Below are positions 1-41,794 of a DNA stretch of 64,000 nt, one piece after another. The DNA is taken from assembly GCA_032622095.1 (NCBI GenBank), contig CP136062.1:165500590-165564589 (forward strand). Direction: 5' to 3'. Source of the DNA: Siphonodentalium dalli. Lineage: Eukaryota; Mollusca; Scaphopoda; Gadilida; Siphonodentaliidae. Position 1 is the stretch's first letter. The number at the start of each line of letters is the position of its first letter. Below the pieces are notes generated by a model that was not told the DNA's origin, did not search any database, and saw only the letters and a list, made by a program, of their open reading frames with translations. Made by a program: the position numbers and the translations under genes.

Positions 1-345
1 GTGAGTGTAGTTTGACCAGGTGGTCGTCGCTGTCGTATTGGCGAGTCCGTGCGACGCCCGTGCAGCGCATGCGCAGACGAGATATCGGAAACGGGTGGAG
101 CTATCGACTTGAAATTTGGTATGTGAATGTATCTTGCCCCGGATACGAATTTTATCGGTCGCCGAGCCCGTACGACGCCAGATTCGCGCATGCGCAGACC
201 AGATCTCGGAAACGGGTGGAGCTATCGACTTGAAATTTGGTTTTTGAGTAGCCCGGTCCTTTACGGGATTACATTGAAAAACTAAAATTAATGGATCGAC
301 CAAAGCCATGGGACGAATGCCGCCAGTGGCGGGCTAACCTGCTAG
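1..345 (+). mobile_element. Helitron unit 0, 3' part (type C)
   Basis: The left end is cut by the window. It holds two copies of the roughly 122-bp GCGCATGCGCAG module and an end at CTAG 342-345. It is nearly identical to 12968-13314, the tail of unit 12, so the two units descend from one recent copy. Confidence 0.85.
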
Positions 346-1381
346 TCTATCTATACTATATATTTTGAGACTTCGTATATATATATGTGTGTGTGTACTT
401 CATAGAATCCAAAACGCGTGTACAGATTGAGATCAAATTTGGTATGTAAGTGTAAAATCCCACCGACACCGCCGTAATCGTGTTTTCGAGAAGCTCTGAG
501 CACCCTTTATCCACTCCCAGTCATCGAAATCAGCTCAAACGGCACGGCCGGGGTTAATAACGTCATTATATATATATATGAAGTCAGAGTCTCCAAAGTT
601 ATACCGGAACAAACACGTGTTTACGTCGTCTTGGGGGTCCACGATGGGAGTCTGACTTCAATGCAATGTTATCGCTCGAAACACGTGTTTACTTCGTGTT
701 GAGGTTCACGATGGGAGTCTGACAATTGTTATCGCTCGAAATAGTACATTAGGACGGGAACGGCTGGACAGATTGAGCTCAAACTTCCTATCTAAAGGTA
801 AAATATCACGTACGATGTCGTCCACGCGTTTTCCAGAAGCTCAGAGCACCCGTACTCCACTCCCAGTCATAAAAATCAGCTCAAACGGCACGGCGGGGGT
901 TAATAACGTCATTATATATATATATACGAAGTCAACGTTATTAGCATCTGCATTGAGTGCATTTCCTAGAACGCAACACGTGTTTTACGTCGTCTTGAGG
1001 TTCACGATGGGAGTCATTTCAATGCAATGTTATCGCTCGAAACACGTGTTTACTTCGTGTTGAGGTTCACGATGGGAGTCTGACATTTCAATGCAATGTT
1101 ATTGCTCGAAATATTATGCAGAAAGGCAGATCTCGGAAACGGGTGGAGCTATCGACCTGAAATTTGCTATGTGAATGTATCTTGCGCCGGGTACAAATTT
1201 TATCGGGTCGCCGAGTACGTGCGACGCCAGCTTCGCGCATGCGCAGACCAGATCTCGGAAACGGGTGGAGCTACCGGGTACAAATTTTTCTTATTGAAAC
1301 GCGTGGAGCTAAAAATTATAAAAAAAAATTAAAAAAATGTCATGTTTCGGACAAGCCGCCGGTGGCGGGCTAACCTGCTAG
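346..1381 (+). mobile_element. Helitron unit 1 (type A, 1036 bp)
   Basis: The 5' end is T(CTAT)2ACTATATATT. A (TG)n tract follows at about 400-415. The body has two related halves of about 350 bp (from 421 and from 771), each holding a GATTGAG-TCAAA motif, an AACGTCATTATATATATA tract and CACGTG palindromes (four in the unit). The tail has one and a half GCGCATGCGCAG modules, the hairpin and CTAG 1378-1381. It is nearly identical to unit 8. Confidence 0.88.
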
Positions 1382-2570
1382 TCTATCTATACTATATATT
1401 TTGAGACTTCGTATATATATATGTGTGTGTGTACTTCATAGAATCCAAAACGCGTGTACAGATTGAGATCAAATTTCGTATGTAAGTGTAAAATCCCACC
1501 GACACCGCCGTAATCGTGTTTTCGAGAAGCTCTGAGCACCCTTTATCCACTCCCAGTCATCGAAATCAGCTCAAACGGCACGGCCGGGGTTAATAACGTC
1601 ATTATATATATATATGAAGTCAGAGTCTCCAAAGTTATACCGGAACAAACACGTGTTTACGTCGTCTTGGGGGTCCACGATGGGAGTCTGACTTCAATGC
1701 AATGTTATCGCTCGAAACACGTGTTTACTTCGTGTTGAGGTTCACGATGGGAGTCTGACAATTGTTATCGCTCGAAATAGTACATTAGAACGGGAACGGC
1801 TGGACAGATTGAGCTCAAACTTCCTATCTAAAGGTAAAATATCACGTACGATGTCGTCCACGCGTTTTCCAGAAGCTCCGAGCACCCGTACTCCACTCCC
1901 AGTCATAAAAATCAGCTCAAACGGCACGGCCGGGGTTAATAACGTCATTATATATATATATACGAAGTCAACGTTATTAGCATCTGCATTGAGTGCATTT
2001 CCTAGAACGCAACACGTGTTTTACGTCGTCTTGAGGTTCACGATGGGAGTCATTTCAATGCAATGTTATCGCTCGAAACACGTGTTTACTTCGTGTTGAG
2101 GTTCACGATGGGAGTCTGACATTTCAATGCAATGTTATCGCTCGAAATATTATGCAGAAAGGCAGATCTCGGAAACGGGTGGAGCTATCGACCTGAAATT
2201 TGCTATGTGAATGTATCTTGCACCGGGTACAAATTTTATCGGGTCGCCGAGCCCATGCGACGCCCGTGCAGCGCATGCGCAGACGAGATCTCGGAAACGG
2301 GTGGAGCTATCGACTTGAAATTTGCTATGTGAATGTATCTTGGGCCGGGTACAAATTTGATCGGGTCGCCGAGCCCGTGCGACGCCAGCTTCACGCATGC
2401 GCAGACCAGATCTCGGAAACGGGTGGAGCTACCGGGTACAATTTTTTCTTATTGAAACGCGTGGAGCTAAAAATAAAAAATAAAATATAAACAAATGTCA
2501 CAATTAACTCATTGAAAAACAAAAAATGTCATGTTTCGGACAAGCCGCCGGTGGCGGGCTAACCTGCTAG
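1382..2570 (+). mobile_element. Helitron unit 2 (type B, 1189 bp)
   Basis: It has the same two-half body as type A but one more 122-bp GCGCATGCGCAG module in the tail and an extra CACAATTAACTCATTGAAAA stretch before the hairpin. It closely resembles the array-2 units at 39411, 40603, 41795 and 45432, so the two arrays share a source family. Confidence 0.88.
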
Positions 2571-2596
2571 TCTATACTATATATTTTGAGACTTCG

Positions 2597-2634
<38 letters not shown>

Positions 2635-4150
2635 ATAGAATCCAAAACGCGTATACAGATTGAGCTCAAACTTCCTATGTAAGTGTCAAATCCCACCGAC
2701 ACGACCGTGGTCGTGGTTTAGAAAAGCTCAGAGCACCCGTTCTCCAATCTCAAATCACCGCAAAGGCACGGCGTGGGTTAATCAAGTGATTATTTAATGA
2801 GCGTTTGTTTTTGACGCATCTCTATAAAGAGCGTCTGTTTGCCATTCAACGTTATTTGCATCTGCAGAGAGATATACGGAACATACATTAAATTTAAAAA
2901 AACATTTGTTTCTGACCAACCCTGCGAGCACGGATGGCGCGCTTTGTTTTTACAGTATATAGTTATATACCGAAATCATCCAAGATAATCACGAATATAG
3001 CATCAGATTTCTCCCCAGATATACCGTTATAAAGCTAATGGAATCTGCCAATCTACGGGAAATTCCAGGGAATGCCGATTGAGCTCAAACTTGCTACCCA
3101 CGGGAAGTGTCATATATATGAGTGTGTCCTTTATAGACTCGAACCGATTGAGCTCAAACTTGCTAAATAAGAAAATAGCCCCCAAGCCGTAAATATCAAC
3201 AACAACGATATTACTAAATACACGTTTTCGGCAATGTGAGAGTTTTCGGGGAGCCGTGATGCCAACAACAACGACCCGAAGCCCTGAATGCCAACAACAG
3301 ATTCAATGCAATGTTATCTATTATGCAGAGAGACGACATTACGACGGGTACGGCAGACTCAAAATATTATGCAGACAGATTTCCCGACGGGAAGCGTTTG
3401 TTTTAAATTCAATGCAATGTTATCGTAGAGAGATTTCACGAAACAAAGAATGCGTTGTCTGTCGTTCCTAGGAAGGGGGGATTTCTACGGGTAAATTTTT
3501 CCGCCAGAAACAAAAAAATTAATTAAAACAATTTACAATTTAATTAAAACAATATAAAATTAAAAAAAATTAACAATAAAAAAACAATTCAGAAACAAAA
3601 TATATTAAATTTAAAAAACATTAAATTCATATTCAAAAATAAAAAACAAAAATAAATAAAAACAAAATAATTACAAAAATGTCATGTTTCTGAAACAAAG
3701 CCATGGGACGAATGCCGCCAGAGGCGGGCTAACCTGCTTGATTAAAAGGGCAGAATTAACTCATTGAAAGACAAAAAGTCATGTTTCTGACAAAGCCATG
3801 AGACGAACCACGCCAATTTTATCGGGTCGCCGAGCCCGTGCGACGCCAGCTTCGCGCATGCGCAGACCAGATCTCGGAAACGGGTGGAGCTATCGACTTG
3901 AAATTTGGTTTTTGAATAGCTCGGACAACGTCGGGCTCAACAATTTTTCATCGGGTCAGTTCTTTCCGCCCGATGTACCTTCAATCTTTTAGGGACGGGT
4001 ACCATAATTAACTCGTTGAAAAACCAAATGTTATTTTGTCATGCCTGTACGGGGTTACCTTGAAAAACACAAATAAATAGATCGACCAAAGCTTAATGGA
4101 TCGACCAAAGCCATGGGACCAATCCCGCCAGTGGCGGGCTAATCTGCTAG
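2571..4150 (+). mobile_element. Helitron unit 3 (type C, double 3' end)
   Basis: Type C body: TG tract, TTTGACGCATCTCTATAAAG region, a pair of GATTGAGCTCAAACTT motifs at about 3080-3160, AACAACAACGATATT, then an A-rich tail from about 3500. The first 3' end (hairpin then CTTG at 3737-3740) is mutated from CTAG and is not followed by a new 5' end. The sequence continues 410 bp through a GCGCATGCGCAG module to a second hairpin and CTAG 4147-4150, where unit 4 starts. This reads as terminator bypass. The alternative is two elements fused by deletion. Confidence 0.75.
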
Positions 4151-5182
4151 TCTATACTATATATTTTGAGACTTCGTATATATATATGTGTGTGTGTACT
4201 TCATAGAATCCAAAACGCGTGTACAGATTGAGATCAAATTTGGTATGTAAGTGTAAAATCCCACCGACACCGCCGTAATCGTGTTTTCGAGAAGCTCTGA
4301 GCACCCTTTATCCACTCCCAGTCATCGAAATCAGCTCAAACGGCACGGCCGGGGTTAATAACGTCATTATATATATATATGAAGTCAGAGTCTCCAAAGT
4401 TATACCGGAACAAACACGTGTTTACGTCGTCTTGGGGGTCCACGATGGGAGTCTGACTTCAATGCAATGTTATCGCTCGAAACACGTGTTTACTTCGTGT
4501 TGAGGTTCACGATGGGAGTCTGACAATTGTTATCGCTCGAAATAGTACATTAGGACGGGAACGGCTGGACAGATTGAGCTCAAACTTCCTATCTAAAGGT
4601 AAAATACCACGTACGATGTCGTCCACGCGTTTTCCAGAAGCTCAGAGTACCCGTACTCCACTCCCAGTCATAAAAATCAGCTCAAACGGCACGGCGGGGG
4701 TTAATAACGTCATTATATATATATATACGAAGTCAACGTTATTAGCATCTGCATTGAGTGCATTTCCTAGAACGCAACACGTGTTTTACGTCGTCTTGAG
4801 GTTAACGATGGGAGTCATTTCAATGCAATGTTATCGCTCGAAACACGTGTTTACTTCGTGTTGAGGTTCACGATGGGAGTCTGACATTTCAATGCAATGT
4901 TATTGCTCGAAATATTATGCAGAAAGGCAGATCTCGGAAACGGGTGGAGCTATCGACCTGAAATTTGCTATGTGAATGTATCTTGCGCCGGGTACAAATT
5001 TTATCGGGTCGCCGAGTACGTGCGACGCCAGCTTCGCGCATGCGCAGACCAGATCTCGGAAACGGGTGGAGCTACCGGGTACAAATTTTTCTTATTGAAA
5101 CGCGTGGAGCTAAAAATTATAAAAAAAAATTAAAAAAATGTCATGTTTCGGACAAGCCGCCGGTGGCGGGCTAACCTGCTAG
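4151..5182 (+). mobile_element. Helitron unit 4 (type A, 1032 bp)
   Basis: The 5' end has n=1 of CTAT. Diagnostic variants (ACCACGTACG, CAGAGTACCC, GGTTAACGATGG) are shared with units 5 and 7 and set them apart from units 1, 8 and 10. Near-identity with the adjacent unit 5 points to recent tandem duplication. Confidence 0.88.
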
Positions 5183-6214
5183 TCTATACTATATATTTTG
5201 AGACTTCGTATATATATATGTGTGTGTGTACTTCATAGAATCCAAAACGCGTGTACAGATTGAGATCAAATTTGGTATGTAAGTGTAAAATCCCACCGAC
5301 ACCGCCGTAATCGTGTTTTCGAGAAGCTCTGAGCACCCTTTATCCACTCCCAGTCATCGAAATCAGCTCAAACGGCACGGCCGGGGTTAATAACGTCATT
5401 ATATATATATATGAAGTCAGAGTCTCCAAAGTTATACCGGAACAAACACGTGTTTACGTCGTCTTGGGGGTCCACGATGGGAGTCTGACTTCAATGCAAT
5501 GTTATCGCTCGAAACACGTGTTTACTTCGTGTTGAGGTTCACGATGGGAGTCTGACAATTGTTATCGCTCGAAATAGTACATTAGGACGGGAACGGCTGG
5601 ACAGATTGAGCTCAAACTTCCTATCTAAAGGTAAAATACCACGTACGATGTCGTCCACGCGTTTTCCAGAAGCTCAGAGTACCCGTACTCCACTCCCAGT
5701 CATAAAAATCAGCTCAAACGGCACGGCGGGGGTTAATAACGTCATTATATATATATATACGAAGTCAACGTTATTAGCATCTGCATTGAGTGCATTTCCT
5801 AGAACGCAACACGTGTTTTACGTCGTCTTGAGGTTAACGATGGGAGTCATTTCAATGCAATGTTATCGCTCGAAACACGTGTTTACTTCGTGTTGAGGTT
5901 CACGATGGGAGTCTGACATTTCAATGCAATGTTATTGCTCGAAATATTATGCAGAAAGGCAGATCTCGGAAACGGGTGGAGCTATCGACCTGAAATTTGC
6001 TATGTGAATGTATCTTGCGCCGGGTACAAATTTTATCGGGTCGCCGAGTACGTGCGACGCCAGCTTCGCGCATGCGCAGACCAGATCTCGGAAACGGGTG
6101 GAGCTACCGGGTACAAATTTTTCTTATTGAAACGCGTGGAGCTAAAAATTATAAAAAAAAATTAAAAAAATGTCATGTTTCGGACAAGCCGCCGGTGGCG
6201 GGCTAACCTGCTAG
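5183..6214 (+). mobile_element. Helitron unit 5 (type A, 1032 bp)
   Basis: By eye the same as unit 4 in length and in every diagnostic variant. Its end CTAG 6211-6214 is followed by a next unit that begins TACTATATATT, that is with no CTAT repeat and no terminal TC. Confidence 0.88.
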
Positions 6215-7350
6215 TACTATATATTTTGAGACTTCGTATATATATATGTGTGTACTTCATAGAATCCAAAACGACTGATCCGACCGAGCTCAAATTTCGT
6301 ATGTAAGTGTAAAATCCCACCGACACCGCCGTAGTCGCAGTTTAGAAAAGCTCAGAGCACCCGTTCTCCACTCCCATTCATCAAAATCAGCTCAAACGGT
6401 ACGGCCGGGGTTAATAACGTCATTATATATATATATGAAGTCAGAGTCTCCAGAGTTATACCGGAACAAACACGTGTTTACGTCGTCTTGGGGGTCCACG
6501 ATGGGAGTCTGACTTCAATGCAATGTTATCGCTCGAAACACGTGTTTACTTCGTGTTGAGGTTCACGATGGGAGTCTGACAATTGTTATCGCTCGAAATA
6601 GTACAACGGCTGGACAGATTGAGCTCAAACTTCCCATCTAGAGGTAAAATCGCACGTACGATGTCGTCCACGCGTTTTCCAGAAGCTCCGAGCACCCGTA
6701 CTCCACTCCCAGTCATTAAAATCAGCTCAAACGGCACGGCCGGGGTTAATAACGTCATTATATATATATATGAAGTCAGAGTCTCCAGAGTTATACGGGA
6801 ACAAACACGTGTTTACGTCGTCTTGGGGGTCCACGATGGGAGTCTGACTTCAATGCAATGTTATCGCTCGAAACACGTGTTTACTTCGTGTTGAGGTTCA
6901 CGATGGGAGTCTGACAATTGTTATCGCTCGAAATAGTACATTAGGACGGGTACGAAATGCATTTATCTCGATTAAAAAGGCAGATCTCGGAAACGGGTGG
7001 AGCTATCGACTTGAAAATTGCAATGTGAATGTATCTTGCGCCGGGTACAAATTTTATCGGGTCGGCGAGCCCATGCGACGCCCGTGCAGCGCATGCGCAG
7101 ACGAGATATCGGAAACGGGTGGAGCTATCGACTTGAAATTTGCTATGTGAATGTATCTTGGGCCGGGTACAAATTTGATCGGGTCGCCGAGCCCGTGCGA
7201 AGCCAGCTTCGCGCATGCGCAGACCAGATCTCGGAAACGGGTGGAGCTACCGGGTACAATTTTTTCTTATTGAAACGCGTGGAGCTAAAAATTAAAAAAA
7301 AATATAAACAATGTTTCGGACAAGCCGCCGGTGGCGGGCTACCCTGCTAG
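6215..7350 (+). mobile_element. Helitron unit 6 (type B variant, 1136 bp)
   Basis: It starts TACTATATATT. It carries private changes: a shortened (TG)n, GAATCCAAAACGACTGATCC near the 5' end, a GAAGTCAGAG repeat in its second half where other units have GAAGTCAACG, and a GATTAAAAAGG segment at about 6970. It is the most diverged unit of the A/B group and ends at CTAG 7347-7350. Confidence 0.85.
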
Positions 7351-8382
7351 TCTATACTATATATTTTGAGACTTCGTATATATATATGTGTGTGTGTACT
7401 TCATAGAATCCAAAACGCGTGTACAGATTGAGATCAAATTTGGTATGTAAGTGTAAAATCCCACCGACACCGCCGTAATCGTGTTTTCGAGAAGCTCTGA
7501 GCACCCTTTATCCACTCCCAGTCATCGAAATCAGCTCAAACGGCACGGCCGGGGTTAATAACGTCATTATATATATATATGAAGTCAGAGTCTCCAAAGT
7601 TATACCGGAACAAACACGTGTTTACGTCGTCTTGGGGGTCCACGATGGGAGTCTGACTTCAATGCAATGTTATCGCTCGAAACACGTGTTTACTTCGTGT
7701 TGAGGTTCACGATGGGAGTCTGACAATTGTTATCGCTCGAAATAGTACATTAGGACGGGAACGGCTGGACAGATTGAGCTCAAACTTCCTATCTAAAGGT
7801 AAAATACCACGTACGATGTCGTCCACGCGTTTTCCAGAAGCTCAGAGTACCCGTACTCCACTCCCAGTCATAAAAATCAGCTCAAACGGCACGGCGGGGG
7901 TTAATAACGTCATTATATATATATATACGAAGTCAACGTTATTAGCATCTGCATTGAGTGCATTTCCTAGAACGCAACACGTGTTTTACGTCGTCTTGAG
8001 GTTAACGATGGGAGTCATTTCAATGCAATGTTATCGCTCGAAACACGTGTTTACTTCGTGTTGAGGTTCACGATGGGAGTCTGACATTTCAATGCAATGT
8101 TATTGCTCGAAATATTATGCAGAAAGGCAGATCTCGGAAACGGGTGGAGCTATCGACCTGAAATTTGCTATGTGAATGTATCTTGCGCCGGGTACAAATT
8201 TTATCGGGTCGCCGAGTACGTGCGACGCCAGCTTCGCGCATGCGCAGACCAGATCTCGGAAACGGGTGGAGCTACCGGGTACAAATTTTTCTTATTGAAA
8301 CGCGTGGAGCTAAAAATTATAAAAAAAAATTAAAAAAATGTCATGTTTCGGACAAGCCGCCGGTGGCGGGCTAACCTGCTAG
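7351..8382 (+). mobile_element. Helitron unit 7 (type A, 1032 bp)
   Basis: It shares all the diagnostic variants of units 4 and 5 although unit 6 lies between. This suggests multi-unit duplication or gene conversion rather than simple one-by-one growth. Confidence 0.88.
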
Positions 8383-9418
8383 TCTATCTATACTATATAT
8401 TTTGAGACTTCGTATATATATATGTGTGTGTGTACTTCATAGAATCCAAAACGCGTGTACAGATTGAGATCAAATTTGGTATGTAAGTGTAAAATCCCAC
8501 CGACACCGCCGTAATCGTGTTTTCGAGAAGCTCTGAGCACCCTTTATCCACTCCCAGTCATCGAAATCAGCTCAAACGGCACGGCCGGGGTTAATAACGT
8601 CATTATATATATATATGAATTCAGAGTCTCCAAAGTTATACCGGAACAAACACGTGTTTACGTCGTCTTGGGGGTCCACGATGGGAGTCTGACTTCAATG
8701 CAATGTTATCGCTCGAAACACGTGTTTACTTCGTGTTGAGGTTCACGATGGGAGTCTGACAATTGTTATCGCTCGAAATAGTACATTAGGACGGGAACGG
8801 CTGGACAGATTGAGCTCAAACTTCCTATCTAAAGGTAAAATATCACGTACGATGTCGTCCACGCGTTTTCCAGAAGCTCAGAGCACCCGTACTCCACTCC
8901 CAGTCATAAAAATCAGCTCAAACGGCACGGCGGGGGTTAATAACGTCATTATATATATATATACGAAGTCAACGTTATTAGCATCTGCATTGAGTGCATT
9001 TCCTAGAACGCAACACGTGTTTTACGTCGTCTTGAGGTTCACGATGGGAGTCATTTCAATGCAATGTTATCGCTCGAAACACGTGTTTACTTCGTGTTGA
9101 GGTTCACGATGGGAGTCTGACATTTCAATGCAATGTTATTGCTCGAAATATTATGCAGAAAGGCAGATCTCGGAAACGGGTGGAGCTATCGACCTGAAAT
9201 TTGCTATGTGAATGTATCTTGCGCCGGGTACAAATTTTATCGGGTCGCCGAGTACGTGCGACGCCAGCTTCGCGCATGCGCAGACCAGATCTCGGAAACG
9301 GGTGGAGCTACCGGGTACAAATTTTTCTTATTGAAACGCGTGGAGCTAAAAATTATAAAAAAAAATTAAAAAAATGTCATGTTTCGGACAAGCCGCCGGT
9401 GGCGGGCTAACCTGCTAG
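8383..9418 (+). mobile_element. Helitron unit 8 (type A, 1036 bp)
   Basis: The 5' end has n=2 of CTAT, as in unit 1, and the body matches unit 1 except for a GAATTC/GAAGTC change near 8617. It ends at CTAG 9415-9418, followed by TACTATATATT. Confidence 0.88.
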
Positions 9419-10514
9419 TACTATATATTTTGAGACTTCGTATATATGTGTGTGTGTGTGTGTGTGTACTTCATAGAATCCAAAACGCGTGTAAAGATTG
9501 AGCTCAAACTTCCTATGTAAGTGTCAAATCACACCGACACGACCGTGGTCGTGGTTTAGAGAAGCTCAGAGCACCCGTTCTCCAATCTCAAATCACCACA
9601 AAGGCACGGCGGGGGTTAATCAAGTGATTATTTAATGAGCGTTTATTTTTGACGCATCTCTATAAAGAGCGTCTGTTTCCCATTCAACGTTATTCGCATC
9701 TGCAGAGTTATACGGGAACGCAAACGTTATCGCTCGAAATTTATTCCCTGCGAGCACGGATGGCGCGCTTTGTTTTTACAGTATATACCTTCGATATATA
9801 CCGAAATCATCCCAGATAATCACGAATATAGCATCAGATTTCTCCCCAGATATACCGTTATAAAGCTACTGGAATCTGCCAATCTACGGGAAATTCCAGG
9901 GAATGCCGATTGAGCTCAAACTTGCTACCTACGGGAAGTGTCATATATATGAGTGTGTCCTTTATAGACTCTAACCGATTGAGCTCAAACTTGCTAAATA
10001 AGAAATTAGCCCCCAAGCCGTAAATATCAACAACAACGATATTACTAAATACACGTTTTCGGCAATGTGAGAGTTTTCGGGGAGCCGTGATGCCAACAAG
10101 TAAATCTGTCTTCGGGTCGTTGTTGTTGCCAACAACAACGACCCGAAGACAGATTTCTCGACGGGAAGCGTTTGTTTTAAATTCAATGCAATGTTATCGT
10201 AGAGAGCTTTCACGAAACAAAGAATGCGTTGTCTGTCGTTCCTAGGAAGGGGGGATTTCTACGTGTAAATTTTTCCGCCAGAAACAAAAAAATTAATTAA
10301 AACAATTTACAATTTAATTAAAACAATTTAAAATTAAAAAAAATTAACAATAAAAAAACAATTCAGAAACAAAATATATTAAATTTAAAAAACATTAAAT
10401 TCATATTCAAAAATAAAAAACAAAAATAAATAAAAACAAAATAATTACAAAAATGTCATGTTTCTGAAACAAAGCCATGGGACGAATGCCGCCAGTGGCG
10501 GGCTAACCTGCTAG
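9419..10514 (+). mobile_element. Helitron unit 9 (type C, 1096 bp)
   Basis: Type C body with an A-rich tail (about 10283-10452). It carries a perfect 55-bp palindrome at 10102-10156 that is absent from the type C units at 2571 and 46620. It is nearly identical to unit 13 (13315-14414). Confidence 0.86.
10102..10156. repeat. Perfect 55-bp palindrome inside unit 9
   Basis: The 27-nt arm 10102-10128 is the exact reverse complement of 10130-10156, with a single C between them. Unit i (about 47285-47325) has only the right arm, so the left arm is a derived inverted duplication. The second copy is at 14002-14056. Confidence 0.9.
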
Positions 10515-11546
10515 TCTATACTATATATTTTGAGACTTCGTATATATATATGTGTGTGTGTACTTCATAGAATCCAAAACGCGTGTACAGATTGAGATCA
10601 AATTTTGTATGTAAGTGTAAAATCCCACCGACACCGCCGTAATCGTGTTTTCGAGAAGCTCTGAGCACCCTTTATCCACTCCCAGTCATCGAAATCAGCT
10701 CAAACGGCACGGCCGGGGTTAATAACGTCATTATATATATATATGAAGTCAGAGTCTCCAAAGTTATACCGGAACAAACACGTGTTTACGTCGTCTTGGG
10801 GGTCCACGATGGGAGTCTGACTTCAATGCAATGTTATCGCTCGAAACACGTGTTTACTTCGTGTTGAGGTTCACGATGGGAGTCTGACAATTGTTATCGC
10901 TCGAAATAGTACATTAGGACGGGAACGGCTGGACAGATTGAGCTCAAACTTCCTATCTAAAGGTAAAATACCACGTACGATGTCGTCCACGCGTTTTCCA
11001 GAAGCTCAGAGCACCCGTACTCCACTCCCAGTCATAAAAATCAGCTCAAACGGCACGGCCGGGGTTAATAACGTCATTATATATATATATACGAAGTCAA
11101 CGTTATTAGCATCGGCATTGAGTGCATTTCCTAGAACGCAACACGTGTTTTACGTCGTCTTGAGGTTCACGATGGGAGTCATTTCAATGCAATGTTATCG
11201 CTCGAAACACGTGTTTACTTCGTGTTGAGGTTCACGATGGGAGTCTGACATTTCAATGCAATGTTATCGCTCGAAATATTATGCAGAAAGGCAGATCTCG
11301 GAAACGGGTGGAGCTATCGACCTGAAATTTGCTATGTGAATGTATCTTGCGCCGGGTACAAATTTTATCGGGTCGCCGAGTACGTGCGACGCCAGCTTCG
11401 CGCATGCGCAGACCAGATCTCGGAAACGGGTGGAGCTACCGGGTACAAATTTTGCTTATTGAAACGCGTGGAGCTAAAAATTAAAAAAAAAAATTAAAAA
11501 AATGTCATGTTTCGGACAAGCCGCCGGTGGCGGGCTAACCTGCTAG
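10515..11546 (+). mobile_element. Helitron unit 10 (type A, 1032 bp)
   Basis: A mosaic of type A variants: ACCACGTACG as in unit 4, CAGAGCACCC as in unit 1, GGCACGGCCGGGG as in type B. This fits recombination among units. It ends at CTAG 11543-11546. Confidence 0.87.
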
Positions 11547-11990
11547 TACTATATATTTTGAGACTTCGTATATATATATGTGTGTGTATGTATGTAATTC
11601 ATAGACTCGAACCGATTGAGCTCTAACTTGCTAAATAAGAAAATAGCCCCCCAAGCCGTAAATATCAACAACAACGATATTACTAAATACACGTTTTCGG
11701 CAATGTGAGAGTTTTCGTATGCAGACAGATTTCCCGACGGGAAGCGTTTGTTTTAAATTCAATGCAATGTTATCGTAGAGAGATTTCACGAAACAAAGAA
11801 TGCGTTGTCTGTCGTTCCTAGGAAGGGGGGATTTCTACGGGTAATTTTTTCCGCCAGAAACAAAAAAATTAATTAAAACAATTTACAATTTAATTAAAAC
11901 AATTTAAAATTAAAAAAAATTAACAATAAAAAAACAATTCAGAAACAAAATATATTAAATTTAAAAAACATTAAATTCATATTCAAATAT
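11547..11990 (+). mobile_element. Helitron unit 11, truncated type C
   Basis: It starts TACTATATATT, has lost most of the type C 5' half, and keeps the GATTGAGCTC motif, the AACAACAACG region and the A-rich tail. It matches unit 14 up to ATGTCAT at 11984-11990, then switches abruptly to Penelope-like coding sequence. The hairpin and CTAG are missing. Confidence 0.8.
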
Positions 11991-12088
11991 GTCATCAATA
12001 CAGTTCACCACGGAGAAAGATCATGAACAGATACCATTTCTTGATGTCCTTGTATTGATAAAAGAACAAAAAAATCCAAACAGATATA
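11991..12088 (+). pseudogene. Penelope-like element ORF, upstream fragment
   Basis: The frame beginning at 11989 reads IQFTTEKDHEQIPFLDVLV, the conserved segment of the Penelope-like (PLE) reverse transcriptase that precedes the HP-box region; in PLEs it resembles IQFT-E---LPFLDV. Everything 5' of this is missing, and the fragment starts directly at a Helitron tail. At A12088 it is interrupted by a Helitron block, and the next residues of the protein continue at T16921 in the same codon. It is non-functional, as it is 5' truncated and interrupted. Confidence 0.8.
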
Positions 12089-13314
12089 TCTATCTATCTA
12101 TACTATATATTTTGAGACTTGGTATATGTGTGTGTGTGTGTGTGTGTGGGTACTTCATAGAATCCAAAACGCGTGTAAAGATTGAGCTCAAACTTCCTAT
12201 GTAAGTGTCAAATCACACCGACACGACCGTGGTCGCGGTTTAGAGAAGCTCAGAGCACCCGTTCTCCAATCTCAAATCATCGCAAAGGCACGGCGGGGGT
12301 TAATCAAGTGATTATTTAATGAGCGTTTGTTTTTGACGCATCTCTATAAAGAGCGTCTGTTTCCCATTCAACGTTATTCGCATCTGCAGAGTTATACGGG
12401 AACGCAAACGTTATCGCTCGAAATTTATTCCCTGCGAGCACGGATGGCGCGCTTTGTTTTTACAGTATATACCTTTGGTATATACCGAAATCATCCCAGA
12501 TAATCACGAATATAGCATCAGATTTCTCCTCAGATATACCGTTATAAAGCTACTGGAATCTGCCAATCTACGGGAAATTCCAGGGAATGCCGATTGAGCT
12601 CAAACTTGCTACCTACGGGAAGTGTCATATATATGAGTGTGTCCTTTATAGACTCTAACCGATTGAGCTCAAACTTGCTAAATAAGAAAATAGCCCCCAA
12701 GCCGTAAATATCAACAACAACGATATTGCTACCTACGGGGAGCAACGTTATTAGCATCTGCAGAATTATGCAGAGAGAAAGTGCTTTCCTATTTTTAGAA
12801 CGCAACACATGTTTACGTCGCGTTGGTGATTGAGGTTCACAACGGGGTTAATTGACTGTCCGCTCTTTGCGACGATGAGGTTCACGGCGGGGACTATTGA
12901 CCAACACTCACAATTTCGTCTTTTGCATCAGATACCAACACCTCGACCGATCGGGACGAAACTTGGTACGTGAGTGTAGTTGGACCAGGTGGTCGTCGCT
13001 GTCGTATTGGCGAGTCCGTGCGACGCCCGTGCAGCGCATGCGCAGACGAGATATCGGAAACGGGTGGAGCTATCGACTTGAAATTTGGTATGTGAATGTA
13101 TCTTGCCCCGGATACGAATTTTATCGGTCGCCGAGCCCGTACGACGCCAGATTCGCGCATGCGCAGACCAGATCTCGGAAACGGGTGGAGCTATCGACTT
13201 GAAATTTGGTTTTTGAGTAGCCCGGTCCTTTACGGGATTACATTGAAAAACTAAAATTAATGGATCGACCAAAGCCATGGGACGAATGCCGCCAGTGGCG
13301 GGCTAACCTGCTAG
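12089..13314 (+). mobile_element. Helitron unit 12 (type C, 1226 bp)
   Basis: The 5' end has n=3 of CTAT. From about 12728 the body departs from other type C units: it gains GGTTCACGGCGGGG, then a CGACCGATCGGGACGAAACTT motif at about 12943-12963, and ends in two GCGCATGCGCAG modules identical to unit 0. It ends at CTAG 13311-13314. Confidence 0.85.
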
Positions 13315-14414
13315 TCTATACTATATATTTTGAGACTTCGTATATATGTGTGTGTGTGTGTGTGTGTACTTCATAGAATCCAAAACGCGTGTAAAGATTG
13401 AGCTCAAACTTCCTATGTAAGTGTCAAATCACACCGACACGACCGTGGTCGTGGTTTAGAGAAGCTCAGAGCACCCGTTCTCCAATCTCAAATCACCACA
13501 AAGGCACGGCGGGGGTTAATCAAGTGATTATTTAATGAGCGTTTATTTTTGACGCATCTCTATAAAGAGCGTCTGTTTCCCATTCAACGTTATTCGCATC
13601 TGCAGAGTTATACGGGAACGCAAACGTTATCGCTCGAAATTTATTCCCTGCGAGCACGGATGGCGCGCTTTGTTTTTACAGTATATACCTTCGATATATA
13701 CCGAAATCATCCCAGATAATCACGAATATAGCATCAGATTTCTCCCCAGATATACCGTTATAAAGCTACTGGAATCTGCCAATCTACGGGAAATTCCAGG
13801 GAATGCCGATTGAGCTCAAACTTGCTACCTACGGGAAGTGTCATATATATGAGTGTGTCCTTTATAGACTCTAACCGATTGAGCTCAAACTTGCTAAATA
13901 AGAAATTAGCCCCCAAGCCGTAAATATCAACAACAACGATATTACTAAATACACGTTTTCGGCAATGTGAGAGTTTTCGGGGAGCCGTGATGCCAACAAG
14001 TAAATCTGTCTTCGGGTCGTTGTTGTTGCCAACAACAACGACCCGAAGACAGATTTCCCGACGGGAAGCGTTTGTTTTAAATTCAATGCAATGTTATCGT
14101 AGAGAGCTTTCACGAAACAAAGAATGCGTTGTCTGTCGTTCCTAGGAAGGGGGGATTTCTACGTGTAAATTTTTCCGCCAGAAACAAAAAAATTAATTAA
14201 AACAATTTACAATTTAATTAAAACAATTTAAAATTAAAAAAAATTAACAATAAAAAAACAATTCAGAAACAAAATATATTAAATTTAAAAAACATTAAAT
14301 TCATATTCAAAAATAAAAAACAAAAATAAATAAAAACAAAATAATTACAAAAATGTCATGTTTCTGAAACAAAGCCATGGGACGAATGCCGCCAGTGGCG
14401 GGCTAACCTGCTAG
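13315..14414 (+). mobile_element. Helitron unit 13 (type C, 1100 bp)
   Basis: Near-identical to unit 9, including the 55-bp palindrome (14002-14056) and the AAATTAGCCCCC variant. The main difference is CTCG against CCCG after the palindrome. It is followed by TACTATATATT. Confidence 0.87.
14002..14056. repeat. Perfect 55-bp palindrome inside unit 13
   Basis: Same arms and single-base centre as 10102-10156. Its survival intact in two copies suggests recent duplication. Confidence 0.9.
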
Positions 14415-15416
14415 TACTATATATTTTGAGACTTCGTATATATATATATGTGTGTGTATGTATGTACTTCATAGAATCGAAAACGGTTCGCTCGATTGAG
14501 TTCAAACTTCCCATCTAAATGTAAAATGCCACCGACACGACCGTGGTCGCGGTTTAGAGAAGCTCAGAGCACCCGTTCTCCAATCTCAAATCACCGGAAA
14601 GGCACGTCGTGGGTTAATCAAGTGATTATTTAATGAGCGTTTGTTTTTGACGCATCTCTATAAAGAGCGTCTGTTTGCCATTCAACGTTATTTGCATCTG
14701 CAGAGAGATATACGGAACATACATTAAATTTAAAAAACATTTGTTTCTGACCAACCCTGCGAGCACGGATGGCGCGCTTTGTTTTTACAGTATATAGTTA
14801 TATACCGAAATCATCCCAGATAATCACGAATATAGCATCAGATTTCTCCCCAGATATACCGTTATAAAGCTACTGGAATCTGCCAATCTACGGAAAATTC
14901 CAGGGAATGCCGATTGAGCTCAAACTTGCTACCCACGGGAAGTGTCATATATATGAGTGTGTCCTTTATAGACTCTAACCGATTGAGCTCTAACTTGCTA
15001 AATAAGAAAATAGCCCCCAAGCCGTAAATATCAACAACAACGATATTACTAAATACACGTTTTCGGCAATGTGAGAGTTTTCGTATGCAGACAGATTTCC
15101 CGACGGGAAGCGTTTGTTTTAAATTCAATGCAATGTTATCGTAGAGAGATTTCACGAAACAAAGAATGCGTTGTCTGTCGTTCCTAGGAAGGGGGGATTT
15201 CTACGGGTAAATTTTTCCGCCAGAAACAAAAAAATTAATTAAAACAATTTACAATTTAATTAAAACAATTTAAAATTAAAAAAAATTAACAATAAAAAAA
15301 CAATTCAGAAACAAAATATATTAAATTTAAAAAACATTAAATTCATATTCAAATATGTCATGTTTCTGAAACAAAGCCATGGGACGAATGCCGCCGGTGG
15401 CGGGCTAACCTGCTAG
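14415..15416 (+). mobile_element. Helitron unit 14 (type C, 1002 bp)
   Basis: It has a GGTTCGCTCGATTGAG variant of the 5' motif and a deletion joining GAGAGTTTTCG to TATGCAGACAG, shared with truncated unit 11. The tail is a shortened A-rich tract. It ends at CTAG 15413-15416. Confidence 0.86.
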
Positions 15417-16108
15417 TCTTCTCTTCTTCTATATATTTTGAGAACTCCTTGTATTCGAGAGATAGCCCACACCATCCGGACCTCAATGATATGATCGTGA
15501 ATGAGTATTGATATACCCCACTAAACTTTGAAAAACACCAGTAATGGTGTGTAGATCATTTACATATCTCTCCTATATATTTTAATACAATCTATCTAAT
15601 TTACATATCTCTCTTATATATTTATGTTTGTGTGTGTGTTGTACTTCATACAAATCTACGATTCTCGACCGATCCTGACGAAACTTGGTACGTGTGTGTA
15701 GTTTGACCAGGCGGTGGTCGTTTTCGCAATGGCGAGTCCGTGCGACGCCCGTGCAGCGCATGCGCAGACGAGATCTCGGAAACGGGTGGAGCTATCGACT
15801 TGAAATTTGCTATGTGAATGTATCTTGCGCCGGGTACAAATGTTATCGGGTCGCCGAGCCCGTGCGACGCCCGTGCAGCGCATGTGCAGACGAGATCTCG
15901 GAAACGGGTGGAGCTATCGACTTGAAATTTGGCATGTGAATGTATCTTGCGCCGGGTACAAATTTTCATGCGCAGACCAGATCTCGGAAACTGGTGGAGC
16001 TACCGGGTACAAATTTTCTTTTTGAAACGCGTGGTACTAAAAATTAATAAAATATATATAAAAATGTCATGTTTCGGACAAGCCGCCAATGGCGGGCTAA
16101 CCTGCTAG
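15417..16108 (+). mobile_element. Helitron unit 15 (type D, 692 bp)
   Basis: A different, shorter family: the 5' end is TCTTCTCTTCTTCTATATATTTT, then GAACTCCTTG, two near-repeats of TTTACATATCTCTC, a CGACCGATCCTGACGAAACTT motif, and two GCGCATGCGCAG modules 122 bp apart. The 3' hairpin and CTAG are the same as in the larger units. Confidence 0.86.
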
Positions 16109-16920
16109 TCTCTTCTTCTATATATTTTGAGAACTCCTTGTATTCGAGAGATAGCCCACACCCTCCGGACCTCAATGATATGATCGTGAATGAGTATTGA
16201 TATACCCCACTAAACTTTGACAAACACCAGTAATGGTGTGTAGATCATTTACATATCTCTCCTATATATTTTAATACAATCTATCTAATTTACATATCTC
16301 TCTTATATATTTATGTTTGTGTGTGTGTTGTACTTCATACAAATCTACGATTCTCGACCGATCCTGACGAAACTTGGTACGTGTGTGTAGTTTGACCAGG
16401 CGGTGGTCGTTGTCGTAATGGCGAGTCCGTGCGACGCCCGTGCAGCGCATGCGCAGACGAGATCTCGGAAACGGGTGGAGCTATCGACTTGAAATTTGCT
16501 ATGTGAATGTATCTTGCGCCGGGTACAAATTTTATCGGGTCGCCGAGCCCGTGCGACGCCCATGCAGCGCATGCGCAGACGAGATCTCGGAAACGGGTGG
16601 AGCTATCGACTTGAAATTTGCTATGTGAATGTATCTTGCGCCGGGTACAAATGTTATCGGGTCGCCGAGCCCGTGCGACGCCCGTGCAGCGCATGTGCAG
16701 ACGAGATCTCGGAAACGGGTGGAGCTATCGACTTGAAATTTGGCATGTGAATGTATCTTGCGCCGGGTACAAATTTTCATGCGCAGACCAGATCTCGGAA
16801 ACTGGTGGAGCTACCGGGTACAAATTTTTCTTTTTGAAACGCGTGGAACTAAAAATTAATAAAATATATATAAAAATGTCATGTTTCGGACAAGCCGCCG
16901 GTGGCGGGCTAACCTGCTAG
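16109..16920 (+). mobile_element. Helitron unit 16 (type D, 812 bp)
   Basis: As unit 15, but with one more 122-bp module: modules begin at 16448, 16570 and 16692. The two adjacent copies thus differ mainly in module number. CTAG 16917-16920 is followed by resumed PLE coding sequence. Confidence 0.88.
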
Positions 16921-17819
16921 TATACTATAAAATAACTGATACACACCAATATCTGGATTTTCGGTCCTGCCACCCATCTCACACAAAACGAAATATACCT
17001 TATTGTTTAGCGAGACGAGTGTCAGCCATAATCAGTGAACCAACATTACGAGATAAAAGATTGGAAGAACTCTACGTATTCTTGAAACAACAACATTATC
17101 CAGAACAATTAATAATGAATGGCATAGATAGAGCGCGGAACACCACATTAGAAGAATTTCGCGCCGAAAATTTAAAACAAAATAACAAAAAATCTATACC
17201 ATTTGTAACCACACACAATCCTCGCCACAACAACATCTCGCGATGTGCAAAGGACCTTTTTCCTATCCTAGAAAAGAGTGACAAAATGCGATCGCTGGTG
17301 AATAAGGACGAAATTATAGATAGTAAGCGCCAACCAAGTAACTTAAAACGAATCCTGACAAAGGCACGCTTCACCACAGAAAACAAAACTGAATACCAAG
17401 TAAAACGCTGTGGTGACAAACGATGTAAAGCATGCCGTCACGTGTTTCCGGGGAAAAAATTACCATTAAAAAACAAAATGGAAATATTCCCAAATACTGA
17501 CTTGGACTGTAAATAAAACAATCTGATATACTACATAACTTGCGATGGATGCGGCGAAGGATACGTAGGCCAAACCGGAAACACTGTACGTGAAAGGGTG
17601 ACCATCCATCGGCAACAAATAAATCATAAGGAATATCGACAGATACCACAAAGTGGGCATTTGGAAGAATGCAACAATGGCAAATTCAGGATATTCCCAT
17701 TCTACAAAATGGAAACAGACAATATTATGGCTAGACTAGCACAAGAAGATCTCTTTAAACAACGTTTCCGGTCGAAACTAAACGCCGGAAGTGACGTGTA
17801 CAACCCACAACGGAAGTGA
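16921..17819 (+). pseudogene. Penelope-like element ORF, C-terminal half (RT end plus GIY-YIG)
   Basis: The open frame starts with KITDTHQYLDFRSCHPSH, the conserved PLE segment at the end of the reverse transcriptase, followed by IPYCLARRV. A Cys/His linker follows (CGDKRCKACRH, about 17409-17441). Then comes a GIY-YIG-type endonuclease region, with IYYITCDGCGEGYVGQTGN at about 17526-17582 and RERV-IHR after it. One in-frame TAA at 17514-17516 separates linker and endonuclease; the frame then continues to TGA at 17817-17819. Reverse transcriptase plus GIY-YIG is diagnostic of endonuclease-bearing Penelope elements (established family knowledge). The copy is dead: 5' truncated, split by Helitrons, internal stop. 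Confidence 0.88.
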
Positions 17820-37584: not shown

Positions 37585-37609
37585 TCTATCTATTATATAT
37601 TTTGAAAGA

Positions 37610-37642
<33 letters not shown>

Positions 37643-38327
37643 CTGTCTGTGTGTGTGTGTGTAATCGATGAACTCGAAAACGACCGACCCGATTTCGATG
37701 AAACTTGGTATGTGGGGGTATTTTCGGGTCAGGAGTAACATAGGCCTATTGATTTTCAGATCCGATGTCAACTTTTCACGTGCCGAGGTCAAATCTGTTT
37801 TTACGCCGTTTTGCGCTAATATATTTCAGTTCGGTGCTCACAAATCGATTCGATATAGCGCGAATAATAAATTGCCAGTCATATAATTTGCACGGTTAGA
37901 ATCTGTGGCGCTTCATCTTTCCAATGATGTATCACACGCCTGTGTACGTTTAAAGTTTCTACCTTAATTATCGGGAAGAACGCAGGACCATGCTTCGCTC
38001 ATCGAAAATCATTGCGTAAATATATTACGCCATCAACATATCGTGACGTGATCGCGTTAACTCTTAACCGGCCGATGTCGCGTTAACTCATCACCGGCCG
38101 AGGTATCCACAAATGACATTGGGCTATATATCTCGGAAACGGGTGGAGCTATCGACTTGAAATTTGGTATGTGAATGTATCTTGCCCCGGATACAAATTT
38201 TATCGGGTCGCCGAGCCCGTGCGACGCCAGCTTCGCGCATGCGCAGACCAGATCTCGAAAACGGGTGGAGCAATCTACTTGAAATTTGGTTTTTGAATAG
38301 CCCGGACGAAGTCGGGTCACCTTCTAG
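37585..38327 (+). mobile_element. Helitron unit a (type E, 743 bp)
   Basis: 5' end TCTATCTATTATATATTTTG, then a GT microsatellite (37613-37640) and CCCGATTTCGATGAAACTTGG. Its 3' part is a GCGCATGCGCAG module like the other families. The terminus differs: hairpin CCCGGACGAAGTCGGG then TCACCTTCTAG (CTAG 38324-38327). It shares this 3' end with 54368-55375. Confidence 0.85.
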
Positions 38328-38353
38328 TCTATACTATATATTTTGAGACTTCG

Positions 38354-38391
<38 letters not shown>

Positions 38392-39410
38392 ATAGAATCC
38401 AAAACGCGTGTACATATTGTTCTCAAACTTCCTATGTAAGTGTCAAATCACACCGACACGACCGTGGTCGCGGTTTAGAGAAGCTCAGAGCACCCGTTCT
38501 CCAATCTCAAATCACCGCAAAGGCACGGCGTGGGTTAATCAAGTGATTATTTAATGAGCGTTTGTTTTTGACGCATCTCTATAAAGAGCGTCTGTTTCCC
38601 ATTCAACGTTATTAGCATCTGCATAGTTATACGGGAACGCAAACGTTATCGCTCGAAATTTATTCCCTGCGAGCACGGATGGCGCGCTTTGTTTTTACAG
38701 TATATACCTTTGGTATATACCGAAATCATCCCAGATAATCACGAATATAGCATCAGATTTCTCCCCAGATATACCGTTATAAAGCTACTGGAATCTGCCA
38801 ATCTACTATTAATATGTGTGTATATATGTGGGTACTTCATAGAATCGAAAACGCGTGTATGAACGGGCATCCCCACGGCAAAGTCGGCAAATATATATGA
38901 GTGTGTCCTTTATAGACTCGAACCGATTGAGCTCAAACTTGCTAAATATTTACTGGGAAATTCCAGGGAATGCCGATTGAGCTCAAACTTGCTACCTACG
39001 GGAGGTGTCATATATATGTGTGTGTCCTTTGTAGACTCGAACCGATTGAGCTCAAACTTGCTAAATACGGGAAGTGTCATGGACGGGTTCATTGAAAAAC
39101 AAAACAAAAATCGGGTAAAATTGAAAAACAAAATTAAAAAGGCACAATTAACTCCTTGAAAAACCAAAAAAAATCGGGTAAAATTGAAAAACAAAAAATT
39201 AAATTAAAAAATTGAAAAAGCACAATTAACTCATTGAAAAACAAAATAATTAACTCATTGAAAAACAAAAAATTAAATTAAAATTGTCATGTTTCTGACT
39301 ATTGCCGAAATTTGCTGCAAATGCAGCACAAGTGTCTCGGAACCTGTTGCAATTGCTTTTTCGAACAAAGCCATGGGACGAATGCCGCCAGTGGCGGGCT
39401 AACCTGCTAG
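38328..39410 (+). mobile_element. Helitron unit b (type C, 1083 bp)
   Basis: Type C body with a local rearrangement at 38805-39060, where the GATTGAGCTCAAACTTGCTA motif occurs three times and a second GTACTTCATAGAATCG 5'-like segment is embedded at 38832-38847. Tail has repeated ATTGAAAAACAAAA. Confidence 0.83.
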
Positions 39411-40602
39411 TCTATCTATCTATACTATATATTTTGAGACTTCGTATATATGTGTGTGTGTGTGTACTTCATAGAATCCAAAACGCGTGTACAGATTGAG
39501 ATCAAATTTCGTATGTAAGTGTAAAATCCCACCGACACCGCCATAATCGTGTTTTCGAGAAGCTCTGAGCACCCTTTATCCACTCCCAGTCATCGAAATC
39601 AGCTCAAACGGCACGGCCGGGGTTAATAACGTCATTATATATATATATGAAGTCAGAGTCTCCAAAGTTATACCGGAACAAACACGTGTTTACGTCGTCT
39701 TGGGGGTCCACGATGGGAGTCTGACTTCAATGCAATGTTATCGCTCGAAACACGTGTTTACTTCGTGTTGAGGTTCACGATGGGAGTCTGACAATTGTTA
39801 TCGCTCGAAATAGTACATTAGGACGGGAACGGCTGGACAGATTGAGCTCAAACTTCCTATCTAAAGGTAAAATATCACGTACGATGTCGTCCACGCGTTT
39901 TCCAGAAGCTCCGAGCACCCGTACTCCACTCCCAGTCATAAAAATCAGCTCAAACGGCACGGCCGGGGTTAATAACGTCATTATATATATATATACGAAG
40001 TCAACGTTATTAGCATCTGCATTGAGTGCATTTCCTAGAACGCAACACGTGTTTTACGTCGTCTTGAGGTTCACGATGGGAGTCATTTCAATGCAATGTT
40101 ATCGCTCGAAACACGTGTTTACTTCGTGTTGAGGTTCACGATGGGAGTCTGACATTTCAATGCAATGTTATCGCTCGAAATATTATGCAGAAAGGCAGAT
40201 CTCGGAAACGGGTGGAGCTATCGACCTGAAATTTGCTATGTGAATGTATCTTGCACCGGGTACAAATTTTATCGGGTCGCCGAGCCCATGCGACGCCCGT
40301 GCAGCGCATGCGCAGACGAGATCTCGGAAACGGGTGGAGCTATCGACTTGAAATTTGCTATGTGAATGTATCTTGGGCCGGGTACAAATTTGATCGGGTC
40401 GCCGAGCCCGTGCGATGCCAGCTTCGCGCATGCGCAGACCAGATCTCGGAAACGGGTGGAGCTACCGGGTACAATTTTTTCTTATTGAAACGCGTGGAGC
40501 TAAAAATTAAAAAAAAATATAAACAAATGTCACAATTAACTCATTGAAAAACAAAAAATGTCATGTTTCGGACAAGCCGCCGGTGGCGGGCTACCCTGCT
40601 AG
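39411..40602 (+). mobile_element. Helitron unit c (type B, 1192 bp)
   Basis: 5' end with n=3 of CTAT. Body as unit 2. It lacks the 5-bp insertion seen in units d and e. CTAG 40599-40602. Confidence 0.88.
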
Positions 40603-41794
40603 TCTTCTATACTATATATTTTGAGACTTCGTATATATGTGTGTGTGTGTGTACTTCATAGAATCCAAAACGCGTGTACAGATTGAGATCAAATTTCGTA
40701 TGTAAGTGTAAAATCCCACCGACACCGCCATAATCGTGTTTTCGAGAAGCTCTGAGCACCCTTTATCCACTCCCAGTCATCGAAATCAGCTCAAACGGCA
40801 CGGCCGGGGTTAATAACGTCATTATATATATATATGAAGTCAGAGTCTCCAAAGTTATACCGGAACAAACACGTGTTTACGTCGTCTTGGGGGTCCACGA
40901 TGGGAGTCTGACTTCAATGCAATGTTATCGCTCGAAACACGTGTTTACTTCGTGTTGAGGTTCACGATGGGAGTCTGACAATTGTTATCGCTCGAAATAG
41001 TACATTAGGACGGGAACGGCTGGACAGATTGAGCTCAAACTTCCTATCTAAAGGTAAAATATCACGTACGATGTCGTCCACGCGTTTTCCAGAAGCTCCG
41101 AGCACCCGTACTCCACTCCCAGTCATAAAAATCAGCTCAAACGGCACGGCCGGGGTTAATAACGTCATTATATATATATATACGAAGTCAACGTTATTAG
41201 CATCTGCATTGAGTGCATTTCCTAGAACGCAACACGTGTTTTACGTCGTCTTGAGGTTCACGATGGGAGTCATTTCAATGCAATGTTATCGCTCGAAACA
41301 CGTGTTTACTTCGTGTTGAGGTTCACGATGGGAGTCTGACATTTCAATGCAATGTTATCGCTCGAAATATTATGCAGAAAGGCAGATCTCGGAAACGGGT
41401 GGAGCTATCGACCTGAAATTTGCTATGTGAATGTATCTTGCACCGGGTACAAATTTTATCGGGTCGCCGAGCCCATGCGACGCCCGTGCAGCGCATGCGC
41501 AGAGCAGACGAGATCTCGGAAACGGGTGGAGCTATCGACTTGAAATTTGCTATGTGAATGTATCTTGGGCCGGGTACAAATTTGATCGGGTCGCCGAGCC
41601 CGTGCGATGCCAGCTTCGCGCATGCGCAGACCAGATCTCGGAAACGGGTGGAGCTACCGGGTACAATTTTTTCTTATTGAAACGCGTGGAGCTAAAAATT
41701 AAAAAAAAATATAAACAAATGTCACAATTAACTCATTGAAAAACAAAAAATGTCATGTTTCGGACAAGCCGCCGGTGGCGGGCTACCCTGCTAG
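40603..41794 (+). mobile_element. Helitron unit d (type B, 1192 bp)
   Basis: 5' end TCTTCTATACTATATATT. It has a 5-bp duplication making GCGCAGAGCAGACGAG at 41497-41512, shared only with unit e, which marks d and e as sister copies. Confidence 0.88.

What the first reader, a model, noticed from the sequence alone, without database searches (positions are those of the whole stretch)
12089..16920. Five-unit Helitron block at one A|T site inside a Penelope ORF, frame resumes exactly
The codon broken after A12088 is completed by T16921-A16922, and the PLE protein continues through conserved residues. The empty site can therefore be inferred from the sequence itself. The block holds three type C and two type D units, so either a mixed concatemer integrated as a single piece or later Helitrons inserted precisely at the terminus of earlier ones.
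Basis: partly seen in the sequence, partly recalled or inferred. Interest (0 to 1): 0.87.

Follow-up and report, generated by a model that had tools for sequence, protein, structure and literature searches.

The report
Rolling-circle transposons stacked tip to tail
Five mobile DNA elements sit head to tail at one precise spot inside a dead retroelement gene, and a small repeat at their joints suggests that such stacks grow one element at a time, each newcomer landing on the front tip of an older one.

Summary
In detail: five Helitron units (12089-16920) sit at one A|T inside a Penelope-like (PLE) ORF, and the joined frame runs on with no gap at the junction against 14 relatives.

Just left of the window the same PLE junction recurs: a tandem duplication holds the first three units (b, g, h) twice, about 0.3% apart. 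The left copy has 8 more units between b and g and 1 between g and h. The 8 sit exactly at the A|T in g's 5' leader: right copy CTAG-TCTATAC-g, left copy CTAG-TCTA-[8 units]-TAC-g.

The leader (TCTA)nTAC acts as a ledger: insertion into it leaves n=0 downstream and spare TCTA upstream. In 13 arrays n falls 5' to 3' in 10, is flat in 3 and rises in none (permutation p=2.5e-5; outside the window 5e-5; two control traits show none). n=0 occurs in 18 of 46 internal leaders, 0 of 9 independent host-flanked ends.

Best reading: 5'-ward serial stacking plus local duplication of units. A G|T insertion and a ledger deficit do not fit.

The parts
12089..16920 (+). the five-unit Helitron block, at A12088|T16921
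   Evidence: unit ends; joined PLE frame
12089..13314 (+). unit B1 (type b; C-type front, D-like rear), leader n=3 (TCTATCTATCTATAC)
   Evidence: 4 substitutions and a 2-base gap from the left copy, over 1321 aligned bases that include 97 bases of PLE
13315..14414 (+). unit B2 (type g), leader n=1
   Evidence: differs from A09 only by the 5' TCTA and one substitution
14415..15416 (+). unit B3 (type h), leader n=0 (TAC)
15417..16108 (+). unit B4 (type D), leader TCTTCTCTTCTTC
   Evidence: 7 substitutions, a 122-base repeat unit and a 5' TCT apart from B5
16109..16920 (+). unit B5 (type D), leader TCTCTTCTTC
11992..12088 (+). 5' part of the PLE ORF in the right copy of the duplication; TCAT at 11992-11995 is the breakpoint microhomology
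16921..17819 (+). 3' part of the PLE ORF (with a TAA stop at 17514-17516) and its GIY-YIG-like end
1..345 (+). A00, rear of unit b in the left copy; the unit begins upstream at about L180:9022 with leader n=3, directly after the same PLE sequence
350..9418 (+). the 8-unit growth (A01-A08) inserted at TCTA|TAC of unit g in the left copy; 346-349 is the spare TCTA
   Evidence: junctions, compared with 13311-13321
9419..10514 (+). A09, unit g in the left copy, leader n=0
10515..11546 (+). A10, unit added between g and h at CTAG|TAC (G|T)
11547..11995 (+). A11t, unit h in the left copy, cut off at the duplication breakpoint and with an internal deletion of about 500 bases
37585..48163 (+). second array (C1-C9) at one A|T, leaders n = 2,1,3,(TCT+1),1,0,1,0,0
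43563..44852 (-). Cm, single inverted unit (n=2) at an A|T in the TA tract of unit C6

Best explanation
The block is a stack of non-autonomous canonical Helitrons. The 5' tip of each unit, (TCTA)n-TACTATATATTTTGAG, resembles the family's own target (A followed by TATA-rich DNA), so a new copy can insert at an A|T in or just before the tip of a resident copy. The newcomer lies upstream, its CTAG end abutting the rest of the old leader, which gives a seamless head-to-tail joint. TCTA repeats upstream of the cut stay upstream, so old units end with n=0 and the spare repeats gather towards the array's 5' edge: stacks grow 5'-ward. Shown: the frame-restoring A|T site, the duplicate with and without the 8 extra units at TCTA|TAC, and the TCTA gradient. 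Inferred: that the 8 units entered one after another, that the block's own five units did so, and the part played by the transposase. Local duplication of units also adds copies.
For: Empty PLE site and frame. The prediction that PLE sequence and the same b junction lie just left of the window was noted before the DNA was fetched and met. Right b|g joint CTAG-TCTATAC, left CTAG-TCTA-[A01..A08]-TAC; A09 and B2 differ only by that TCTA and one substitution. Leaders differ on 10 of 14 nearest-neighbour links between units under 2% apart, against 15 internal indels in 14,753 aligned bases; on 13 of those links the leader differs in 9 and the longer TA/TG tract in 2. n falls 5' to 3' in 10 of 13 arrays, flat in 3, rising in 0, p=2.5e-5; outside the window 7 of 10 falling, 3 flat, p=5e-5; without first units p=1.2e-4. 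Controls: tract length p=0.46, unit length p=0.12. n=0 in 18 of 46 internal leaders and 0 of 9 independent host-flanked ends, Fisher p=0.023. Targets outside arrays GATATA|TATACT, GATAA|TATATT, CGTA|TATATA.
Against: A10 sits between g and h at CTAG|TAC, a G|T joint. The closed array Q is one TCTA short and array R has three too many if every source has n=1; solitary units have n=1 or 2, so the books need not balance exactly. The open arrays L201 and L157-159 are also one short over what was seen. Counting C-type leaders only, L197 rises (1 then 2). A01 and A08, one substitution apart, both have n=2, so some n may be inherited. Runs of identical units (A04=A05=A07; C3, C4 and C5 without a substitution; Q3=Q4=Q6) and an identical p-q dimer (Q4-Q5, Q6-Q7) point to duplication or concatemers. 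C4 and B4 carry an unexplained 5' TCT. Arrays A and B share b, g and h by duplication and are not independent.
Confidence: 0.72

Rival explanations
1. Rolling-circle concatemer: a circle or read-through replication made a multi-unit piece that integrated once at A12088|T16921.
For: Perfect CTAG-TC joints occur in transposition circles of Helraiser (passages of PMC4778049); identical neighbours A04=A05, C4/C5 (differing only by a 5' TCT) and the repeated p-q dimer in array Q.
Against: The five units are of different subtypes (7 substitutions between B4 and B5, more between others). All joints of one circle should share one leader, yet C3, C4 and C5, without a substitution between them, have three different leaders, and n falls 5' to 3'.
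Confidence: 0.12
2. Composite transfer: an array already built elsewhere moved as one element by bypassing the inner CTAG ends, carrying its ledger with it.
For: End bypass is shown for Helraiser (passages of PMC4778049); A03 has a damaged inner terminator (CTTG at 3737-3740) followed by a second terminator at 4150. Nothing seen here rules this out for the first arrival of b-g-h-D-D.
Against: No second copy of the joints b|g, g|h or h|D outside the duplication was met in the window or fetched loci, a small part of the genome. It does not explain the 8-unit growth at TCTA|TAC in one duplicate unless those 8 also moved as one.
Confidence: 0.2
3. Unequal crossing-over and slippage: units are multiplied by recombination, and leader differences are ordinary microsatellite slippage.
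For: Identical units and dimers inside arrays.
Against: The leader differs on 9 of 13 close links, the longer TA/TG tract on 2 of 13; near-identical units A09/B2 and A05/A07 have different neighbours; slippage predicts no gradient. Removing 8 units from the left copy by crossing-over at the shared ends would leave n=0 or n=2 at b|g, not the n=1 seen.
Confidence: 0.1
4. The left and right copies are two haplotypes wrongly joined in the assembly, not a tandem duplication.
For: About 0.3% divergence would suit alleles.
Against: The joint is inside h and the PLE, with only 4 bases (TCAT) in common, as in end-joining. Either way both versions of the b|g joint exist, so the inference about growth stands.
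Confidence: 0.15

Closest known systems
Two adjacent head-to-tail maize Helitrons, r1 region (PMC2267711; passages seen)
   Same: CTAG of one abuts TC of the next (G/T joint); the two are different elements; [quoted passage not shown]
   Different: One pair, with the order of insertion left unclear. Here many-unit arrays carry an internal TCTA record of direction, and a duplicated locus shows the state before and after.
Myotis Helibat tandem junctions (Pritham and Feschotte 2007; paper not held; described in PMC2267711)
   Same: Perfect head-to-tail Helitron joints.
   Different: Read there as rolling-circle tandems because no host A lies between the units; here an A|T inside the resident's own leader explains the missing A.
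Centromeric Helitron arrays of plants (Xiong et al. 2016; known only through PMC12628747 and PMC5148889)
   Same: Long tandem Helitron arrays.
   Different: Those are mostly truncated copies with many 5' ends and a single 3' end; here most units are complete with both ends and of mixed subtypes.
Double insertion by target preference, Drosophila (McGurk and Barbash 2018; known only through PMC12628747)
   Same: Tandem dimers of an element made by insertion preference.
   Different: Described there for elements that make target-site duplications; Helitrons make none, and here the element's own 5' tip resembles the target.
Metarhizium three-copy Helitron tandem (PMC5148889, passages)
   Same: The authors weigh repeated insertion into the 5' end against rolling-circle replication.
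   Different: One case of Helitron2 type, left undecided.

Membership tests
Canonical Helitron (Helitron1 type) | 5' end TC | tested here: met
   12 of 12 host-flanked C-type ends begin TC; units starting TAC occur only after another unit's CTAG among the leaders classified there (one TCTAC leader, L195, set aside)
Canonical Helitron (Helitron1 type) | 3' end CTRR | tested here: met
   CTAG at all five units of the block; GGCGGGCTAACCTGCTAGT has 10,794 exact copies in the genome, reversed control 0
Canonical Helitron (Helitron1 type) | hairpin near the 3' end | tested here: inconclusive
   palindrome CCGCC-nnn-GGCGG in the 4 block ends folded (unit B4 not folded), but the energy is no better than shuffles, z -0.06 to -0.71
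Canonical Helitron (Helitron1 type) | insertion between A and T without target duplication | tested here: met
   PLE site restores the frame; array C and Cm sites. 11 of 12 host-flanked ends follow A (exception L167); 3' flank is T at 5 of 6 sites (exception L183)
Canonical Helitron (Helitron1 type) | Rep/helicase protein coded by the element or an autonomous partner | not tested
   the block has no long ORF of its own; no search for a partner was answered
Penelope-like element (host of the block) | reverse transcriptase with GIY-YIG endonuclease | tested here: met
   relatives carry PF00078, PF01541 and PF26215 in various combinations; the upstream DNA reads ...RYLDDCFF... (read by eye). The 217-aa piece alone gave no Pfam match
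Rolling-circle Helitron concatemer | units of one array alike, with one shared joint | tested here: not met
   mixed subtypes and differing leaders in the block; met only locally in runs such as A04=A05

The most novel reading that the evidence does not exclude
The 5' tip of this Helitron family is an evolved landing pad: by copying its own A|TATA target it steers new copies onto the front of old ones, so arrays grow 5'-ward and record the order of arrival in TCTA counts, a self-made route from transposon to satellite-like array.
Probability: 0.35. Interest if true: 0.8.

Novelty: new variant of a known kind. Interest (0 to 1): 0.6.

Why it matters
How head-to-tail Helitron arrays arise (rolling-circle concatemers or repeated insertion) has been argued since 2007-2008. 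Here a duplicated locus gives a before-and-after picture, and the TCTA leader gives each joint a countable record, so the question can be tested in one genome that holds more than ten thousand exact copies of the 3' end.

Tried and rejected
Relatives of the Helitron in viral and prokaryote collections: the 19-base 3' end and the 21-base 5' end gave no match; two looser junction patterns gave only chance matches (capped, and 49): none of the 149 loci held matched any unit by BLAST. Idea that the PLE was 5'-truncated by inserting into unit A11: dropped when the rest of A11 was not found downstream in the window and the PLE proved to continue left of the window. Strict ledger conservation (sum of n equal to the number of units): holds for some arrays, fails for others, so only the gradient is claimed. 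The ballot test inside the window alone was weak (permutation fractions 0.5, 0.25, 0.25). My first array list left out L197, L188 and L176-177 and the last C1-type unit of L157-159; one search puts them in with one rule, and its figures are used. Host organism: protein search with the LINE ORF failed. Genome-wide counts of joints with n=0,1,2 and a DNA search for PLE copies: not completed.

Full report
Observation. Five units, each ending in CTAG, run from 12089 to 16920. Joining A12088 to T16921 restores one PLE frame, which aligns with 14 related proteins without a gap at the junction. The relatives found, several of them named bivalve proteins, are at most 54% identical over most of the length, so the host is probably a mollusc or something near; the species was not identified.

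Anatomy. C-type units begin (TCTA)n-TAC-TATATATTTTGAGACTT and end CCGCC-nnn-GGCGG-GCTAACCTG-CTAG. Three insertions into non-tip DNA in the window read GATATA|TATACT (PLE), GATAA|TATATT (array C) and CGTA|TATATA (Cm, inverted, inside unit C6). The tip TCTA|TACTATATAT resembles them.

A before-and-after pair. Units b, g, h of the block (B1, B2, B3) have their closest matches in the array to the left, in the same order: A00 rear (1 difference in 345 bases), A09 (1 substitution and the 5' TCTA) and A11t (3 substitutions in the aligned part, plus a large deletion). From this I predicted that PLE sequence and the same junction would lie just left of the window. The fetched DNA shows it: PLE, then b with n=3, at the same A|T; PLE plus b match over 1321 aligned bases with 4 substitutions. 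So a stretch PLE-b-g-h was duplicated in tandem, joined at TCAT. The total is 8 substitutions in about 2,840 bases (my sum). The left copy has 9 units that the right lacks. Eight (A01-A08) lie between b and g: the right joint is CTAG-TCTATAC, the left joints are CTAG-TCTA-TCTATAC (A01) and CTAG-TAC (A09), as expected if the insertion went into TCTA|TAC. The ninth (A10) lies between g and h at CTAG|TAC, a G|T joint that this model does not predict. Loss from the right copy instead of gain in the left is not excluded, but crossing-over at shared ends would leave n=0 or 2, not 1 (inference).

The ledger. Leaders vary far more than the rest of close units: 10 of 14 nearest-neighbour links differ in the leader, against 15 internal indels in 14,753 aligned bases; the longer TA/TG tract differs on 2 of 13 links, the leader on 9 of the same 13. 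Along arrays n falls from 5' to 3'. Counting every array with at least two C or C1-type leaders that I saw (3 in or at the window, 10 elsewhere), 10 fall, 3 are flat and none rises; permutation p=2.5e-5, the least possible with 40,000 shuffles; elsewhere alone 7 fall and 3 are flat, p=5e-5; without the first unit of each array p=1.2e-4. With C-type leaders alone 9 of 10 fall and one (L197: 1, 2) rises; p=2.5e-5, elsewhere 4.5e-4. TA/TG tract length and unit length, tested on four arrays, show no significant gradient (p=0.46, 0.12). Of 63 C-type leaders collected, 46 follow CTAG (n=0: 18, 1: 21, 2: 6, 3: 1), 12 are host-flanked (n=1: 5, 2: 4, 3: 2, 5: 1; 9 independent) and 5 were set aside as irregular. 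The loci come from the first places listed on contig 1 and from the window, not from a random sample. C4 was counted as n=1; as n=2 the result is the same.

What does not fit. Array Q (closed) is one TCTA short and array R has three too many, so sources with n of 2 or more, or other changes, are needed; solitary units with n=2 exist (L165, Cm). Runs of identical units (A04=A05=A07; C3, C4, C5 without a substitution) and an identical p-q dimer repeated in array Q show that whole units or pairs are also duplicated, by recombination or rolling-circle copying. C4 and B4 have an unexplained extra TCT at the 5' end.

Literature. From passages only: consecutive insertion was argued for one maize pair and rolling-circle tandems for Myotis (PMC2267711); circles with perfect joints for Helraiser (PMC4778049); tandem Helitron arrays in plants and bats (PMC5876387); repeated 5' insertion as one of two options for a fungal trio (PMC5148889); dimers by insertion preference and plant concatemers (PMC12628747). 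I found no leader-count ledger in print in the searches that were answered, which cover open-licence papers only and did not name such a ledger directly.

Verdict. A confirmed and well-placed observation; the array type is known; the before-and-after pair and the ledger make it a new variant that can decide between models. Marking it 'new variant of a known kind' rests on the ledger and the tip-as-target, not on the block alone.

Noticed in passing
2571-4150 (CTTG at 3737-3740): Unit A03 has a damaged inner terminator (CTTG for CTAG, hairpin loop changed) and goes on about 400 bases to a second, intact terminator: it looks like a fossil of end bypass.
   Followed up: partly
43563-44852 and L201 (minus strand 2492-3228): Two different Helitron types have inserted, inverted, in the TA tract of a unit at apparently the same place: a recurrent target inside the unit.
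   Followed up: partly
L180, about 1308-1152 bases upstream of the window: A 157-base piece of the PLE 3' end lies inverted upstream of the sense PLE (98% identical), as in twin-primed retroelement insertions.
   Followed up: partly
L200+L189: An array in which an identical two-unit dimer (p-q, members 17 substitutions apart) occurs twice in tandem.
   Followed up: partly
L167: A unit flanked on both sides by the same stretch ATTATATAAACGCTCATTGTAG, like a long target duplication, unusual for a Helitron.
   Followed up: no
28354-31095: A 34-base tandem repeat, about 82 copies.
   Followed up: no
18459-21613: A LINE-like reverse transcriptase ORF (RVT_1) broken near a 14-base repeat at 20267-20305.
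   Followed up: partly
40603-41794 and 15417-16108: Units C4 and B4 begin with an extra TCT that their near-identical or close neighbours lack; no explanation.
   Followed up: no
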